Below, piece by piece: positions 6,708 to 15,470 of a stretch of 64,000 nt of DNA. The notes beneath the pieces are model-generated. The model ran no database searches. It had not been told where the DNA came from and was given only the letters and a program-made list of their open reading frames with translations. Origin of the DNA: Actinomycetes bacterium (GTDB lineage: Bacteria > Actinomycetota > Thermoleophilia > RBG-16-64-13); NCBI GenBank assembly GCA_024637035.1, contig JAGXFW010000016.1, positions 62,001 through 126,000 of the forward strand, read 5' to 3'. The translations under genes and the position numbers were made by a program. Each line of letters starts with the position of its first letter. Within the stretch, counting starts at the first letter, position 1.

Positions 6708-9326
6708 TCAGGCTCCCAGACGGGCCAGTAGGGAGTCCTGGATAGTCTCCAGACCCGCATCGAGGCGACTCGGATCACCGCCTCCGCCACGACCCAGACT
6801 TGGGCTACCCCCGCCCCCGCCCCCGATCAGGGCACCGAGTTCCTTGATCAGATCACCGGCGTGGAACCCAGTCAACTCGGGAGAGACCCCGGCCACCGCA
6901 ACGACCTTGTCATCGGAGATGGCCGCGAGAACGACGACAGCCGGTCCGAGCCGGCCGCGGACTTGATCGAGTAGGGACAGCAGGTGCTCTGTGTCCCGGG
7001 CCGCCACGTGCGCCACGGCCACGCGAGTCTCCCCCGCCGTCACTGAACCATCGAGGATACCGGAGGTCAGATCCGCGGTGGTGCCGGCCATCAGTTCTTT
7101 GTTGTCACGTTCGAGGCTACCCAGTCTGGTCTCGAGCTTGCGTATGGCCGGTACGAGAGCGTCTTCCTGCACCGAGAGCAGCCGGGCCGCTTCGGAGACC
7201 GAAGTATCGCGGTCACGATAGAACTCAACGGCTTTTCGGCCGGTTAGCGCCTCGATCCGTCGTACGTTCGCTCCAACACTGCCTTCGGAGACGATCTTGA
7301 AGATCCCGATCTCACTGGTCGCGTGCACATGCGTGCCGCCGCACAGTTCCCGACTGAAATCATCGACCTCGACTACCCGGACGAAGTCGCCGTACTTCTC
7401 GCCAAAGAGCGCGACAGCGCCGAGGTCTTTGGCGTGGTCAAGACTCGTCGTGAACGCGCGCACCGGGTGGTTCTCTACGATCTTGCGGTTGACGATCGCC
7501 TCCAGTTCGCGTAGGCGTTCCGCCCCGAGGGGCTCGTGATACGCGAAGTCGAAACGGAACTTGTCGGCCCGGACGGCGGACCCCGCTTGGGTCACGTCCT
7601 TCCCGAGCATGGTGCGCAAACCGTAGTGCAGAAGATGGGTGCCAGTGTGGTTGGCCGCAACGGAGTGCCGGTGCACGGAAGAGATGACCGCTTTGGCTCG
7701 CACCCCCGGCTGGAGTTCTCCCTCGACGACGTTCGCGAGCACGATCTGCACCGAGCCGTGTTGTTGCACGTCGCGGACTTCCGCACGGCCCGAGTCTGTC
7801 TCGATCCAACCGATGTCCGCCGTCTGCCCCCCGCTTTCGGCATAGAACGGGCTTTCTCGGAGGCTGAGGATCACGTGCCCGTCTTCGAGTCTCTGCAGGC
7901 GCTCGATGACGGTGAAGACCTCGTCCTGGGCATAGCCGACGAATTCCGTCGGGTGTCCATCCGCCCTGGCCAAGGTGAGAACGGCTTCCTGCACTGTGTC
8001 CGAGCCCCGACTTGAGGCCCGAGCGCGCTCACGCTGTGCGCCCATGGCACTATCGAAGCCCACTCGATCGAGATGCATGCCGCGCTCTTCCACGATCTCT
8101 CTGGTCACCTCGATCGGAAAGCCGTACGTGTCGTGCAGCACGAACGCCGCCCTGCCGGGGAAGACTTCCGTTCCCTCGTCCTCGGCCCTGCGGATCTCTT
8201 CGTCGAGGAGTATCAAGCCCTGGTCCAGGGTGCGATTGAAGCGCTCCTCCTCCGCACCGACGATGCGGAGGATGGTGTCCTGCCGAGCGCGCAGCTCCGG
8301 GTACGCCTCCGACATGAGATCGATGGTGCGCTCCGCGAAACGTGCGAGGAACGGCGGAGTCATGTCGAGGCTCCGGCTGAATCGGGCTGCACGCCTGATC
8401 ACGCGCCTCAAGACGTAGCCCCTGCCCTCGTTCCCGGGAAGAACGCCATCGCCGATAAGGAAGGCCATGGCCCTGGAGTGGTCCGCGAGAACCCGCAAGA
8501 CCACGTCCGCGCTCTCCGAGCTGCCGAAACTCACGCCCGATATCTCTTCACCCAGTTCGATGAGAGGGCGGAACGAGTCGGTGAGGAAGACCGAATCGAC
8601 ATCTTGCATGAGGGCGGCGATGCGCTCCAACCCCATTCCGGTGTCGATATTCTTGGCGGGTAGCGGCGTGAGCCGTCCTTGTTCATCTTGGTTGTACTGC
8701 ATGAACACCAGGTTCCAGTACTCGAGGAAGCGTTCGCAGTCACATCCGGGCTTGCAGTCATCGCTCCCACAGCCGACCTCGACACCACGGTCGTAGTAGA
8801 GCTCCGAGCAGGGGCCGCACGGGCCGGTGGGGCCAGGTGGCCCCCAGAAGTTCTCGCTGCGAGGCAGAGCGACCATCCGTGCTCGTGGGATGCCGACCGC
8901 CTCCCAGTACCCCATGGCTTCCTCGTCGGCTCCGACACGTTCGTCGCCTTCGAAGACCGAGACCCAGATACGGTCGGGCGAGAGGCCCAACTCGGCGGTG
9001 GAGAGCTCGTAGCCGAAGCGGATGGCGTCTTCCTTGAAGTAGTCGCCCACCGAGAAGTTCCCCAGCATCTCGAAGAACGTGCAGTGCCTGGCCGTAAGAC
9101 CGACGCGATCGATGTCCGTAGTGCGAAAGCACTTCTGCACGCTGGTGAGACGAGGCGCGGGCGGATCGGCCATGCCCAGGAAGTACGGCTTGAACGGTTG
9201 CATGCCCGCAGTAGTAAGCAACACGGACGGATCTCGGTACGGTACCAGTGACGCACTGGGAACCAGCAGGTGACCGTTCCTGGTGAAGTAGTCCAGGAAA
9301 AGTCTGCGAAGTTCACTCGTCTTCAC
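6708..9326 (-). CDS. alaS: Alanyl-tRNA synthetase
   Basis: Charges tRNA-Ala in the cytoplasm. All parts are seen: class II catalytic core with GMQPFKPYFLG, the editing domain with the HTGTHLLHYG zinc-site histidines, the later CGGTHVHATSEIG editing motif, and a C-terminal oligomerisation (C-Ala/DHHA1) region ending in a Gly-rich stretch. A cysteine-rich insertion (CGSDDCKPGCDC) near residue 195 sits where other bacterial AlaS carry variable loops. GTG start with GGGAG upstream. 872 aa is full length. Confidence 0.97.
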   Translation of the reverse strand: MKTSELRRLFLDYFTRNGHLLVPSASLVPYRDPSVLLTTAGMQPFKPYFLGMADPPAPRLTSVQKCFRTTDIDRVGLTARHCTFFEMLGNFSVGDYFKEDAIRFGYELSTAELGLSPDRIWVSVFEGDERVGADEEAMGYWEAVGIPRARMVALPRSENFWGPPGPTGPCGPCSELYYDRGVEVGCGSDDCKPGCDCERFLEYWNLVFMQYNQDEQGRLTPLPAKNIDTGMGLERIAALMQDVDSVFLTDSFRPLIELGEEISGVSFGSSESADVVLRVLADHSRAMAFLIGDGVLPGNEGRGYVLRRVIRRAARFSRSLDMTPPFLARFAERTIDLMSEAYPELRARQDTILRIVGAEEERFNRTLDQGLILLDEEIRRAEDEGTEVFPGRAAFVLHDTYGFPIEVTREIVEERGMHLDRVGFDSAMGAQRERARASSRGSDTVQEAVLTLARADGHPTEFVGYAQDEVFTVIERLQRLEDGHVILSLRESPFYAESGGQTADIGWIETDSGRAEVRDVQQHGSVQIVLANVVEGELQPGVRAKAVISSVHRHSVAANHTGTHLLHYGLRTMLGKDVTQAGSAVRADKFRFDFAYHEPLGAERLRELEAIVNRKIVENHPVRAFTTSLDHAKDLGAVALFGEKYGDFVRVVEVDDFSRELCGGTHVHATSEIGIFKIVSEGSVGANVRRIEALTGRKAVEFYRDRDTSVSEAARLLSVQEDALVPAIRKLETRLGSLERDNKELMAGTTADLTSGILDGSVTAGETRVAVAHVAARDTEHLLSLLDQVRGRLGPAVVVLAAISDDKVVAVAGVSPELTGFHAGDLIKELGALIGGGGGGSPSLGRGGGGDPSRLDAGLETIQDSLLARLGA

Positions 9327-11415: not shown

Positions 11416-12885
11416 CTAGTGCGTCTCCTCTATCGACCCCGCCCGCAGCACCGCGTCCCCCTCGTATACGACGCCGGTCTGCCCCAATGCTACGCCTGAT
11501 CCGTGAGTCTTGAGCTTCAAGACCGTGTCAGCGCCCGCGCCACTGACCTCGACGGCGACCACCCCCCCGCTGGAGCGGAATTGCGCGGTTAGCGGGCCCT
11601 TCTCAAGCTTCCCGTGCTCCACCACCTGCCCGAGGCGCACCTCGGTCACCTTGAGGTCATCGCGCGTGCCGACCACTACGGTGCCGTTCGCGGCACCGAT
11701 CGCCGTGACGTACAACGGCTCCGAAGAGGAGATACCAAGACCCTTACGCTGGCCCACAGTGAATCGGAACGTACCCTCATGCGAGCCAAGGACGCGACCC
11801 TCTCCATCGACGATCGTACCTGCCCGGCGACCGAGACGGTCCGTCAGGAATCGTCGGTAATCGTCGTCTGGGATGAAGCAGATCTCCTGGCTCTCTTCCG
11901 CATCGTGGGCTTCCAAACCAGCCTCACGTGCGAGTCGCCTCACCTCGGACTTGACCAGCCCACCCAACGGGAAGACCACTCTTTGCAGTACGACAGGATC
12001 GACTCGGGAGAGAACGTAGGACTGGTCCTTGGCAGGGTCCACCCCGCGGTGCAGGCGCGGAGGTCGACCCATCATGCGGGCGTAGTGTCCTGTGGCCACT
12101 TGGGTCGCCCCGAGGCGGTCGGCCAACCCGATCAGCGCTTCGAACCGCAGAGCTGAGTTGCAGCTGACGCATGGGTTGGGCGTTCGACCGACCGCGTACT
12201 CAGCTACGAAGTGCTCGACCACTTCCTCGAAGAACCGGTGTGTGAGATCCACTGTCAGATGAGGCAAGCCGAGGTGATGAGCCATTCGCCGAGCGGCGCG
12301 GACCGTCTCGGGGCTGCAGCACCCGCTCCCCATGCTACATGACGGGTCTGCCCAGAGACGGAACGTCACGCCGGCCACCGGTTCACCGGTCTGTCTCAAT
12401 AGAAGAGCGGCAGCGGAGCTATCGACCCCTCCGCTCATGGCTACGAGGAACCCACCGGCGGCTTCCTGATCGGGAGGCAGCATCGGGAGTCCCGATGTCA
12501 CCCAGTGTTCGAGAAGGTCGTGAAGGGCATCGGCAGCCACCTCCGAACAGCCTCTCTTGTGAGGCGGCAGGTCGAGGTGCTGGGCGATCGTTTCGTGTCC
12601 GATAGCGGCTGCCTCGAGTATCGTCATGGAGGGGAGACGCGCGACGATCTCGGCCGCGGAGGCGATGGTGGCAGGGCAGCCGAAGGCTTGGAAGCGGGCC
12701 TCGACGATCCGTCCCTGTTGCAGGCGCGCGTGCATCGCAACAAGGTCTCCGCACGTATGACTGCCGGCCGAGCCCGTCGCGTCGGGATACTCGAGGATCC
12801 CGACGCGACGTGGTTCGCGAAGGTGCTCGAGCACGAGTGGACCGTACGCTCGCGGGAAGGGGTCGTGGTCTTGTGCGTGTTCCAT
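11416..12885 (-). CDS. mnmA: Fusion of a NifU/IscU-type Fe-S scaffold domain to tRNA 2-thiouridylase MnmA
   Basis: The C-terminal part (about 145-489) is MnmA, which makes s2U34 in tRNAs: PP-loop SGGVDSS (151-157), the catalytic region NPCVSCN (Cys239, Cys242) and Cys336 in SQEICFIPDDD. The first ~130 residues are an IscU/NifU-N domain with all three scaffold cysteines: Cys45 in the TCGD motif with its Asp47, Cys70 in FGCPATIASA, and Cys113 in RGCSEVAADA. Standard MnmA starts near residue 145, so the front part is an added domain in one uninterrupted frame. No cysteine desulfurase gene is nearby. Inference: Fe-S or persulfide delivery is built into the enzyme. Confidence 0.93.
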   Translation of the reverse strand: MEHAQDHDPFPRAYGPLVLEHLREPRRVGILEYPDATGSAGSHTCGDLVAMHARLQQGRIVEARFQAFGCPATIASAAEIVARLPSMTILEAAAIGHETIAQHLDLPPHKRGCSEVAADALHDLLEHWVTSGLPMLPPDQEAAGGFLVAMSGGVDSSAAALLLRQTGEPVAGVTFRLWADPSCSMGSGCCSPETVRAARRMAHHLGLPHLTVDLTHRFFEEVVEHFVAEYAVGRTPNPCVSCNSALRFEALIGLADRLGATQVATGHYARMMGRPPRLHRGVDPAKDQSYVLSRVDPVVLQRVVFPLGGLVKSEVRRLAREAGLEAHDAEESQEICFIPDDDYRRFLTDRLGRRAGTIVDGEGRVLGSHEGTFRFTVGQRKGLGISSSEPLYVTAIGAANGTVVVGTRDDLKVTEVRLGQVVEHGKLEKGPLTAQFRSSGGVVAVEVSGAGADTVLKLKTHGSGVALGQTGVVYEGDAVLRAGSIEETH

Positions 12886-12958: not shown

Positions 12959-13486
12959 CTAGCGGATATTTGTCAGGTTCTGATTGAGCGTGCCCTCATC
13001 GGCGTACCCGGAGGTCACGGCCTGGATGACCCCGCGGTCGTCCACGAACGTCACTTGCGGCGGATAGTCGATCTCCAAGAGCGCGCTCAGATCCCCGTAG
13101 TCGTCGGGGAGCTTGTAGTCGAATTCGTAGAAGTCGATGTCGGCGAAACGCACCGACAAGTCGTTGAGATGCTGAAGGACGACTGAGTCGTCGGTTCCGC
13201 CGGTGACGTAGAAGGCGATCACCATGGGTGTGTGTCGTTCGACGCTCGCGCGCACCTTCTCAGGGGTGTCATCAGTAACGGCAAGCGTTGTTCCGATGAG
13301 ATGCTTGAATGCCTTGGACGGGCCTGGGGCGACGGTCGTGGTCACTTCGACGACGACGCCCGCATCCGGCGGCTGGGTCTCCTCCGTCGTGGTATCGCCG
13401 CCCCCGCAACCGACAGCGAGTGAGAGGCTGACCAGCAGGAGCATCGCTATGAGCACTACCGGAACGGCCTTACGCATTCGCTGCAT
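12959..13486 (-). CDS. Thioredoxin-fold-like lipoprotein
   Basis: 175 aa. The N terminus is a lipoprotein signal: basic start, hydrophobic core (about 8-24) and lipobox ending at Cys27 (LAVGC), then a Thr/Glu/Pro linker. The rest resembles a thioredoxin-like fold (VIAFYVTGGTDDSVVLQHL, FYEFDYKL, PPQVTFVDDRG) but lacks a CxxC, so it is not an obvious thiol oxidoreductase. Of three clustered ATGs, 13486 is six bases after GGAGG and is preferred over 13489 and 13477. It has its own promoter and long structured leader. Substrate or partner unknown. Confidence 0.8.
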   Translation of the reverse strand: MQRMRKAVPVVLIAMLLLVSLSLAVGCGGGDTTTEETQPPDAGVVVEVTTTVAPGPSKAFKHLIGTTLAVTDDTPEKVRASVERHTPMVIAFYVTGGTDDSVVLQHLNDLSVRFADIDFYEFDYKLPDDYGDLSALLEIDYPPQVTFVDDRGVIQAVTSGYADEGTLNQNLTNIR

Positions 13487-13497
13487 CATGTTCCTCC

Positions 13498-13610
13498 GGA
13501 AAAAAGAAGTGCTCCACCTTGCCGTGTCCGCATCTCCCTTGAACCTGCGTATGCAGGTGGGCGACTGTCCCCGGCGAGCTGCGCCGGCCGGGAGAACGTG
13601 CCTCCCAAGG
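13498..13610 (-). promoter_or_regulatory. Structured leader RNA of the lipoprotein gene (candidate attenuator/riboswitch)
   Basis: The 5' UTR holds three successive hairpins: 13590-13606 (GGGAG/CTCCC), 13571-13587 (CCGGCG/CGCCGG) and 13543-13558 (ACCTGC/GCAGGT). CCACCT (13555-13560) can instead pair with AGGTGG (13514-13519), which is followed by a T-rich run (13500-13508) just before the GGAGG of the gene. The two pairings exclude each other, as in an on/off switch. It matches no riboswitch class I recognise (TPP, FMN, SAM, cobalamin and c-di-GMP-I hallmarks absent). Confidence 0.45.
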
Positions 13611-13662
13611 AAAATGTGTTGGCTCAAGTTTGAGCGGATCACGCACAAGGTCGAGCGCATTA

Positions 13663-13691
13663 ACAGTACCATAGGTGTCTGATTTCGACAA
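13663..13691 (-). promoter_or_regulatory. Candidate promoter of the lipoprotein gene
   Basis: Minus-strand TTGTCG (13686-13691), 17-nt spacer, TACTGT (13663-13668). It would give a leader of about 170 nt, which contains the hairpins at 13498-13610. Confidence 0.5.
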
Positions 13692-13715
13692 AGTCGACGA
13701 CCCCCCTTCACTCCG

Positions 13716-15470
13716 CTAGCCCACCCGTATCCCGAGTTCCTGCAGCTGTGCCCTTGCGACCTCCGATGGAGCGTCCGTGAGTGGACAAGACCCACTTTGA
13801 GTCTTCGGGAAGGCGATCACCTCCCTGATCGAAGATTCACCGGCCATGAGCATCACAGTCCTGTCGAGACCGATCCCCATCCCGCCGTGTGGGGGGACGC
13901 CGAAGTCCATCGCCTCCACCAGGAAACCGAACTTCGCACGTATCTCTTCCTCCTCGAGGCCGAGAACGCGGAACACCTCGTGCTGAAGCAGAGGGTTGGA
14001 TATGCGGATCGATCCGCTGCCCAGTTCCACGCCGTTCAGCACCAGGTCGTATGCCTCGGTCCCGATCTCGAGAGGGCGGTCTCGAAGGTCACTGATTGAA
14101 TCCACACGCGGCTTCGTGAAAGGGTGATGCTGGGCCTTCAGACGGCCTTCCCGCTCATCGAACTCGAACATGGGTGGATCTACCACCCACACGAACCGCC
14201 ACCCGTCACGGGGGATCTGGAGAAGGTCGGCAAGACGGGAGCGCAGGGCGCCGAGACTCGGCTCGACCACTTGAGCGCGATCAGCCACGAACAACAAGAG
14301 ATCGCCCGGCACGGCTTCGAGACGGGCCACGAGACCGGCCATCACCTCGTCGCCGAGGAACTTCGCGATGGGAGAGCGGAGCCCTGAGTCCTCGACCCAC
14401 ACGGGAGCAAGACCCCGGGCTCCGAAGACGGCGACCTCGCCCGAGAGGTCATCGACGTCCTTGCGGGAGAAGCGCGCGCCGCCGGGCGCACGGATGCCGC
14501 GCACAACGCCGCCCAGAGCTAGGGTCTCGGCGAACACCTTGAACTCGACCCCGGCCACCAAGTCGGAGACATCGACGATCTCCATGCCGAATCGCATGTC
14601 GGGCTTGTCCGAGCCGAAGCGGCGCATACTCTCGCGGTAGGTCAAGCGAGGGAAGGGACGCGGCAGTTCCATGCCCAGTACTTCGCTGAAGGCACGGCAC
14701 ATAAGGCCTTCGACTACTCGCTGAACGTCAGCCTCGTGCACGAAACTCAACTCCAGATCGATCTGAGTGTGCTCGAGCTGTCTATCGGCTCTGAGGTCTT
14801 CATCCCTGAATGCCCGCGCTATCTGGTAGTAGCGCTCGAACCCCGCGATCATCAACAGTTGCTTGAAGAGCTGCGGAGACTGCGGCAGGGCATAGAACTC
14901 GCCGCGGCGAAGCCGGCTCGGCACGAGGAAGTCGCGGGCGCCCTCGGGAGTCGATTTCGTGAGGATCGGGGTCTCGAACTCTATGAACCCCTCGTCGTCG
15001 AAGTAGCGACGCACCGATTGGACGACCTGACCCCTCAACCTCAGGTTGTCCTGCAGGCGCTTCCGGCGAAGATCGATGTACCTGTACTTCAGCCTGAGCG
15101 TCTCATCTAGGGCCGTAGTGTCGTCGGGGGAAAAGGGCGGAGTCTTGGCCGGCGTCACTAGGTCGAGAGACTCCACCATGACTTCCACTCGACCCGTGGG
15201 CAGCTTCGGGTTCACCTGGTCCTCACCGCGCGCGACTACAGTTCCCGAGGCGGAGATCACGAACTCGCCGCGAAGATCGTGGGCGCCGACGTGGGCGTCT
15301 GCGTGTTTCTCGGGGTCGAACACGAGTTGCAGCAGACCGCTGCGGTCCCGTAGGTCGATGAAGACCAAGCCGCCGTGATCCCGGCGGCGGTTCACCCAAC
15401 CCGCTACCGTGACCTGCTCGCCGACCGTCACCTCGGTGACATCGGCACACCAGTGCGTTCTATAGCTCAT
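13716..15470 (-). CDS. aspS: Aspartyl-tRNA synthetase
   Basis: Class II synthetase charging tRNA-Asp. Seen: N-terminal OB-fold anticodon domain (TVAGWVNRRRDHGGLVFIDL), motif 2 with FRDEDLRADRQ, a GAD insertion domain, and motif 3 with the GIGLDR ATP site. 584 aa is the bacterial-type length. ATG start overlaps the hisS stop by four bases (ATGA). Whether it is discriminating or also charges tRNA-Asn depends on gatCAB, which is not in the window. Confidence 0.97.
   Translation of the reverse strand: MSYRTHWCADVTEVTVGEQVTVAGWVNRRRDHGGLVFIDLRDRSGLLQLVFDPEKHADAHVGAHDLRGEFVISASGTVVARGEDQVNPKLPTGRVEVMVESLDLVTPAKTPPFSPDDTTALDETLRLKYRYIDLRRKRLQDNLRLRGQVVQSVRRYFDDEGFIEFETPILTKSTPEGARDFLVPSRLRRGEFYALPQSPQLFKQLLMIAGFERYYQIARAFRDEDLRADRQLEHTQIDLELSFVHEADVQRVVEGLMCRAFSEVLGMELPRPFPRLTYRESMRRFGSDKPDMRFGMEIVDVSDLVAGVEFKVFAETLALGGVVRGIRAPGGARFSRKDVDDLSGEVAVFGARGLAPVWVEDSGLRSPIAKFLGDEVMAGLVARLEAVPGDLLLFVADRAQVVEPSLGALRSRLADLLQIPRDGWRFVWVVDPPMFEFDEREGRLKAQHHPFTKPRVDSISDLRDRPLEIGTEAYDLVLNGVELGSGSIRISNPLLQHEVFRVLGLEEEEIRAKFGFLVEAMDFGVPPHGGMGIGLDRTVMLMAGESSIREVIAFPKTQSGSCPLTDAPSEVARAQLQELGIRVG

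What the first reader, a model, noticed from the sequence alone, without database searches (positions are those of the whole stretch)
11416..12885. Fe-S scaffold (NifU/IscU) domain fused to tRNA thiolase MnmA
One continuous frame joins a complete three-cysteine IscU-like domain (Cys45, Cys70, Cys113 plus Asp47) to MnmA. The MnmA part has a CxxC (Cys239/Cys242) where E. coli MnmA has DxxC, plus Cys336, so it could hold a cluster itself. MnmA normally takes sulfur through a relay from IscS. A built-in scaffold suggests direct delivery of Fe-S or persulfide to an Fe-S-dependent thiolase, and could be a dedicated route in organisms lacking the Tus relay.
Basis: partly seen in the sequence, partly recalled or inferred. 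Interest (0 to 1): 0.72.

Follow-up and report, generated by a model that had tools for sequence, protein, structure and literature searches.

The report
IscU domain fused to tRNA thiolase
In a large group of soil and groundwater bacteria, a protein that normally helps build iron-sulfur clusters has become joined to the enzyme that puts sulfur on tRNA; nearly all copies keep one particular cysteine while losing the other two, which suggests the joined part now hands sulfur to the enzyme instead of building clusters.

Summary
One uninterrupted 489-residue frame (12885 to 11416, minus strand) joins a complete IscU/NifU_N domain (Cys45, Asp47, Cys70, Cys113) to a complete MnmA with CC (189/190), CxxC (239/242) and Cys336. 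It is not an assembly error: the fusion recurs across the whole class (Thermoleophilia, judged by named relatives) and in Rubrobacter-type and other deep Actinomycetota. The CC-CxxC-C set is the known 'C-type' MnmA, the type shown elsewhere to carry a [4Fe-4S] cluster, so that part is not new.

The reading as a built-in scaffold is only partly supported. Among 113 fused class members Cys45 is kept in 113, Cys70 in 92 and Cys113 in 19. One family keeps only a short cysteine-free remnant, and some members of the window's own family have lost the domain. Genomes with the fusion have a separate ISC or SUF system. Unfused relatives carry aspS-iscS-iscU-mnmA-alaS, and two fused families still have iscS directly upstream. 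I conclude that an operon partner became a dedicated in-cis domain that docks a cysteine desulfurase and relays persulfide through Cys45 to MnmA (about 0.5). Cluster assembly in cis and a purely structural role remain possible. No description of this fusion was found in the searched literature.

The parts
11416..12885 (-). Fused gene: IscU/NifU_N domain + C-type MnmA, 489 aa, ATG start at 12885
   Evidence: continuous in the sister species and some 100 class genomes
12493..12846 (-). IscU-like domain, residues 14-131
   Evidence: NifU_N 83.4 bits; Foldseek target-normalised TM 0.81-0.89 to most IscU/ISCU2 chains
12751..12753 (-). Cys45, equivalent to E. coli IscU Cys37 / B. subtilis SufU Cys41; the only strictly kept cysteine of the domain in the class
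   Evidence: 113 of 113
12745..12747 (-). Asp47 (equivalent to IscU Asp39)
   Evidence: 90 of 113
12676..12678 (-). Cys70 (second IscU cysteine)
   Evidence: 92 of 113; Ser/Ala in family f6 and Arg in f12
12547..12549 (-). Cys113 (third IscU cysteine), preceded by Gly112 where IscU has His
   Evidence: 19 of 113; alignment
12451..12492 (-). Linker of about 14 residues (132-145)
   Evidence: between the last helix and the first MnmA strand of the model; dN/dS 0.45
11431..12450 (-). MnmA, residues 146-485 (PP-loop SGGVDS 151-156)
   Evidence: NF001138 347 bits over cut-off 284; Foldseek target-normalised TM 0.88 to MnmA 2deu and 2hma
12316..12321 (-). CC motif Cys189-Cys190 of C-type MnmA
   Evidence: 144 of 148 class MnmAs
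12160..12171 (-). CxxC Cys239/Cys242 (E. coli Asp99/Cys102)
   Evidence: 148 of 148
11878..11880 (-). Cys336 (E. coli Cys199)
   Evidence: 148 of 148
13716..15470 (-). aspS, conserved upstream neighbour; in f3, f8 and f11 iscS (and in f3 also iscU) lies between it and mnmA
6708..9326 (-). alaS, conserved downstream neighbour

Best explanation
The N-terminal part is a former operon partner (IscU of an iscS-iscU-mnmA operon) that became covalently fused to a C-type, Fe-S-type MnmA and turned into a dedicated sulfur-delivery domain. An IscS-type cysteine desulfurase docks on the IscU-like domain and passes a persulfide to Cys45, the surface-exposed first cysteine. Cys45 then hands sulfur in cis to the MnmA active site (the cluster held by Cys239/Cys242/Cys336, or a persulfide on Cys336), which thiolates the adenylated U34. 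Shown here: the fusion, both folds, selection on the frame, operon ancestry, near-invariance of Cys45, and loss of Cys70 and Cys113 in many lineages. Inferred: IscS docking, persulfide on Cys45, transfer to MnmA, and a cluster in this protein. The window's protein keeps all three cysteines and Asp47, so it could also still bind a metal or a transient cluster.
For: Cys45 is 113/113 and, with Gly41, the most conserved residue of the domain; Cys70 is 92/113 and Cys113 19/113. On the MnmA tree Cys113 changed at least 5 times, Cys70 2 and Cys45 1. The first IscU cysteine is exposed and proposed as first sulfur acceptor in E. coli (PMC2854127), and it is the persulfide acceptor in SufU (PMC4934914, PMC11021402). 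Unfused relatives have aspS-iscS-iscU-mnmA-alaS, and fused families f8 (8 of 10 loci) and f11 (3 of 4) keep iscS directly upstream. Separate IscU/SufU proteins and, where tested, ISC or SUF systems are present, so the domain is not the general scaffold. Fused domains form one clade apart from all 15 standalone IscU sequences (support 98/93), with much longer branches, as expected for a changed role. C-type MnmA with bound [4Fe-4S] is known from T. thermophilus (PMC8584467).
Against: In mitochondrial ISCU2 the persulfide goes to the third cysteine, not the first (PMC11021402). Two fused proteins outside the class lack Cys45 but keep Cys70 (L283, L279). Family f4 keeps a conserved remnant without any of the three cysteines, and part of f1 has lost the domain, so MnmA can work without the relay. 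In the window's family iscS is not next to the gene. The distance from Cys45 to the MnmA active site is unknown.
Confidence: 0.5

Rival explanations
1. In-cis cluster assembly: the domain still builds or holds an Fe-S cluster and loads or repairs the [4Fe-4S] of its own MnmA half.
For: The window's protein and families f8 and f11 and part of f1 keep three cysteines plus Asp. MnmA is C-type in nearly all 148 class sequences and T. thermophilus C-type MnmA needs [4Fe-4S]. f8 and f11 keep iscS next door.
Against: Most fused proteins (94 of 113) lack the third cysteine and 21 also lack the second, while their MnmA cluster cysteines stay invariant. IscU's His before the third cysteine and its LPPVK motif are changed to Gly112 and LPPHK in the window. 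Separate ISC or SUF scaffolds are present.
Confidence: 0.2
2. Cysteine-independent role: the domain is an operon leftover kept as a docking, folding or tRNA-contacting extension, with no sulfur chemistry of its own.
For: The Cys-free remnant in f4 is still translated (start codon at -80 in most members, G040/G131 dN/dS 0.12) and conserved, and is homologous to the fused domain (hhalign probability 96). Seven sampled f1 MnmAs lack the domain. The domain evolves faster than MnmA in several pairs.
Against: Cys45 is 113/113 in otherwise divergent domains, including f6 and f12, where it is the only cysteine left of the three. Gly38, Gly41 and Cys45 of the IscU site loop are kept while much else varies.
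Confidence: 0.24
3. Bifunctional general scaffold: the fused protein supplies Fe-S clusters to other proteins as well as thiolating tRNA.
For: Complete triad in the window.
Against: The genome has two other iscS-iscU pairs. Far below IscU and SufU equivalog cut-offs (73.9 vs 192.4; 33.3 vs 92.5).
Confidence: 0.04
4. Artefact: two genes joined by an assembly or sequencing error.
For: Adjacent separate iscU and mnmA do exist in relatives.
Against: Same frame in many independent genomes and across the junction in the sister species.
Confidence: 0.01

Closest known systems
C-type (CC-CxxC-C) MnmA, e.g. Thermus thermophilus MnmA
   Same: PP-loop, CC, CxxC and the second-half cysteine all present; tRNA_Me_trans HUP, PRC-barrel and C-terminal domains
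   Different: Carries an extra N-terminal IscU-like domain of about 130 residues
IscU / NifU_N scaffold (ISC system)
   Same: Fold (Foldseek target-normalised TM up to 0.89 to ISCU2); Cys45/Asp47/Cys70/Cys113 at the scaffold positions
   Different: Fused; the triad is not conserved in relatives; Gly for His before the third cysteine; LPPHK for LPPVK; separate clade with long branches
SufU zinc-dependent sulfurtransferase (SufS-SufU)
   Same: IscU fold used to accept persulfide on the first cysteine (PMC4934914, PMC11021402); the working model for this domain
   Different: Low sequence similarity (33 bits, cut-off 92.5); fused to the sulfur consumer; third ligand usually lost
iscS-iscU-mnmA operons (Clostridium and others) and the B. 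subtilis yrvO-mnmA pair
   Same: Dedicated cysteine desulfurase next to MnmA; unfused form of the same arrangement (L134, L068, L153-L159, L284; YrvO)
   Different: There IscU is a separate full-length scaffold or absent
E. coli TusA-TusBCD-TusE relay to MnmA
   Same: Brings persulfide sulfur from IscS to MnmA
   Different: Unrelated carrier proteins acting in trans; D-type MnmA

Membership tests
C-type MnmA (tRNA 2-thiouridine(34) synthase) | Equivalog profile above cut-off | tested here: met
   NF001138 347.2 over 284; TIGR00420 281 over 237
C-type MnmA (tRNA 2-thiouridine(34) synthase) | PP-loop SGGVDS, CC, CxxC and third-position cysteine | tested here: met
   Residues 151-156, 189-190, 239/242, 336; CxxC and Cys336 in 148 of 148 class members
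C-type MnmA (tRNA 2-thiouridine(34) synthase) | [4Fe-4S] cluster and s2U34 activity | not testable with these tools
   Needs anaerobic purification, EPR and an s2U assay
IscU scaffold | IscU fold | tested here: met
   PF01592 83 bits; target-normalised TM up to 0.89 to IscU/ISCU2
IscU scaffold | Three cysteines plus Asp, in the protein itself | tested here: met
   Cys45, Asp47, Cys70, Cys113
IscU scaffold | Three cysteines conserved among orthologues | tested here: not met
   113, 92 and 19 of 113
IscU scaffold | Equivalog cut-off of TIGR01999, conserved His before third Cys, LPPVK motif | tested here: not met
   73.9 bits against 192.4; Gly112 and LPPHK
IscU scaffold | Assembles a cluster | not testable with these tools
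   Biochemistry needed
SufU sulfurtransferase | Equivalog cut-off of TIGR01994 | tested here: not met
   33.3 bits against 92.5
SufU sulfurtransferase | First cysteine present and conserved as persulfide acceptor position | tested here: met
   Cys45 in 113 of 113; acceptor role not tested
SufU sulfurtransferase | Zinc bound by Cys/Asp/Cys/Cys | tested here: inconclusive
   All four residues in the window's protein, but the third cysteine is lost in most relatives; metal not tested

The most novel reading that the evidence does not exclude
A scaffold protein turned in-cis sulfur carrier: in Thermoleophilia, Rubrobacter-type and other deep Actinomycetota, IscU was fused to an Fe-S-type MnmA and re-used as a single-cysteine persulfide shuttle that replaces the Tus relay, a previously undescribed way of feeding a tRNA thiolase.
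Probability: 0.42. Interest if true: 0.72.

Novelty: new variant of a known kind. Interest (0 to 1): 0.56.

Why it matters
How Fe-S-type MnmA receives its sulfur is unsettled, and even whether E. coli MnmA uses a cluster is disputed (PMC11784392). A donor domain fused to the thiolase, with natural three-cysteine, two-cysteine, one-cysteine and cysteine-free versions still attached to an MnmA with all cluster cysteines, is a ready-made mutant series to test which cysteine carries the sulfur. Standard annotation is likely to hide it, because the NCBIfam MnmA model alone names the protein.

Tried and rejected
Assembly-error reading: rejected. General scaffold: rejected because separate ISC or SUF scaffolds are present. 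'Complete triad is the functional point': rejected as a class-wide rule. Coupling of upstream iscS with Cys113: the pattern fits in f8 and f11, but only 1-2 independent pairs exist, so no statistical support. Foldseek of the f4 remnant: IscU structures top the list but no match is significant (E 0.5 or more); the homology claim rests on hhalign. Shigi et al. 2020, the key paper on C-type MnmA, is not held. Searches for a description of the fusion found none. A Bacillota-wide survey for independent fusions failed for want of a genome handle. The distance from Cys45 to Cys336 could not be read because model coordinates are not released. The MnmA tree does not settle whether fusion arose once: fused domains form one clade, but f3 and other unfused MnmAs fall among fused ones.

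Full report
CHECK OF THE OBSERVATION. The minus-strand frame 12885-11416 is open for 489 residues. Pfam finds NifU_N at 14-123 (83 bits) and the three MnmA domains at 147-485; NCBIfam names the protein MnmA well above its cut-off, while the IscU, NifU and SufU equivalog models match far below theirs. Cys45, Asp47, Cys70 and Cys113 align with the IscU scaffold residues, and Cys239/Cys242/Cys336 with E. coli MnmA Asp99/Cys102/Cys199. The model has mean pLDDT 94.9 and pTM 0.92, and Foldseek finds MnmA (target-normalised TM 0.88) and IscU/ISCU2 (up to 0.89) as separate halves.

THE MnmA HALF IS A KNOWN TYPE. MnmA homologues are divided into D-type (C-DxxC-C) and C-type (CC-CxxC-C) (review PMC11784392). 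C-type MnmA of T. thermophilus contains a [4Fe-4S] cluster and is active only without oxygen (PMC8584467). The window's MnmA has CC at 189/190, CxxC and Cys336, and CxxC plus Cys336 are invariant in all 148 class MnmAs examined. The CxxC is therefore expected and is not itself a discovery.

BREADTH OF THE FUSION. A survey of 399 genomes of the class found full-length matches in most families; the matches printed all begin near the start of the fused profile. Named relatives with 65-83% identical MnmA are labelled Thermoleophilia or Solirubrobacterales, so the class is most likely Thermoleophilia; family f23 is 94% identical to a record labelled Rubrobacter. Outside the class, fused forms occur in f23, f16, f55 and f73, and adjacent separate genes in f29, Clostridium and others.

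OPERON ANCESTRY. The locus order hisS-aspS-...-mnmA-DUF948-alaS is largely shared. In f3 the genes are aspS-iscS-iscU-mnmA-alaS, all separate (7 of 7 loci). In f8 (8 of 10) and f11 (3 of 4) iscS still lies directly upstream of the fused gene. In the other families iscS was not found at the locus. Fused domains form one clade against 15 standalone IscU sequences (98/93; all 200 bootstrap trees), with much longer branches. The MnmA tree puts unfused f3 among fused families without firm support, so fusion once with losses and several fusions both remain possible.

FATE OF THE CYSTEINES. In the 113 fused class proteins that keep the domain, Cys45 and Gly41 are kept in all, Cys70 in 92, Asp47 in 90 and Cys113 in 19 (selection not based on cysteines). 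By family: three cysteines in f8, f11 and six of nine f1; two in f2, f5, f7, f9, f10 and three f1; only Cys45 in f6 and f12. On the tree the third cysteine changed at least five times, the second twice, the first once. Family f4 has a remnant of about 75 residues without these cysteines, usually with a start codon at position -80, homologous by hhalign (probability 96, E 1e-9) and confidently modelled as three strands and two helices. Seven sampled f1 genomes have MnmA without the domain. Exceptions to Cys45 outside the class: L283 (f73) and L279 (f16).

SELECTION. In close pairs the domain has dN/dS 0.09-0.31, the linker 0.04-0.74 and MnmA 0.05-0.30. The domain is therefore translated and constrained, somewhat less than MnmA in most pairs. 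The f4 remnant gives 0.12 in one pair and 0.49 in another.

REST OF THE GENOME. The window's genome has no SufB/SufD but two further IscU-type proteins, each beside an iscS: contig C21 (iscS-iscU) and C27 (DsrE-like, TusA, iscS, NifU-like). It also has a TusE/DsrC-like protein beside DsrE2 and a sulfide:quinone-reductase-like gene. In 48 genomes checked, f1, f3 and f6 are ISC-based, with no SufBD or a weak match only, and the others have SUF; G194 showed neither a second NifU_N nor SufBD. The fused domain persists whichever system the cell uses, so it is tied to MnmA and is not the general scaffold.

MECHANISM. In E. coli IscU the first cysteine, Cys37, is surface-exposed and was proposed as the likeliest first acceptor from IscS (PMC2854127). 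In SufU the same position, Cys41, accepts the persulfide (PMC4934914, PMC11021402). In human ISCU2 it is the third cysteine instead. The pattern here, first cysteine kept and third lost most often, resembles SufU-like use. The proposal is that the desulfurase docks on the domain, loads Cys45, and Cys45 feeds the MnmA half in cis. Steps shown: fusion, ancestry, conservation, coexistence with other scaffolds. Steps inferred: docking, persulfide, transfer, cluster. The window's protein keeps the full set, so scaffold-like chemistry cannot be excluded for it in particular.

NOVELTY. Both halves are known families. The fusion, its class-wide spread and the single-cysteine pattern were not found in the open-access papers searched, but most subscription papers, including Shigi et al. 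2020, were not available. I rate it a new variant of a known kind.

Noticed in passing
L018-L020, L022, L025, L030, L033 (family f1 MnmAs without the domain): The CC pair of C-type MnmA is broken in 4 of 7 MnmAs that lost the N-domain but in none of 140 class MnmAs that are fused, carry the remnant or have iscU next door. The four lie near each other on the tree, so this is only a hint that CC and the domain work together.
   Followed up: partly
L144-L151 and others of family f4, residues -80 to -6 before the PP-loop: A conserved cysteine-free remnant of the IscU domain of about 75 residues remains at the MnmA N-terminus and is modelled with high confidence.
   Followed up: partly
window 12959-13795, minus strand: An open frame with a lipoprotein-like signal and a thioredoxin-like look lies between mnmA and aspS, where iscS sits in families f3, f8 and f11.
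   Followed up: no
G000 contig C27, locus L189: A cluster of DsrE-like, TusA, second IscS and a NifU-like protein with an extra C-terminal region: a second sulfur-trafficking unit in the same genome.
   Followed up: no
G000 contig C5, locus L289: A TusE/DsrC-like protein with only the C-terminal penultimate cysteine, next to DsrE2-like and DUF1641-like proteins and a sulfide:quinone-reductase-like gene.
   Followed up: no
G000 whole genome: No SufB/SufD core was found although the genome is listed as 100% complete; Fe-S assembly seems to rest on ISC/NIF-type pairs only.
   Followed up: partly
L010 (G006, family f1): The fused gene of this relative has an in-frame TAG in the matched region; pseudogene or sequencing error not resolved.
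   Followed up: no
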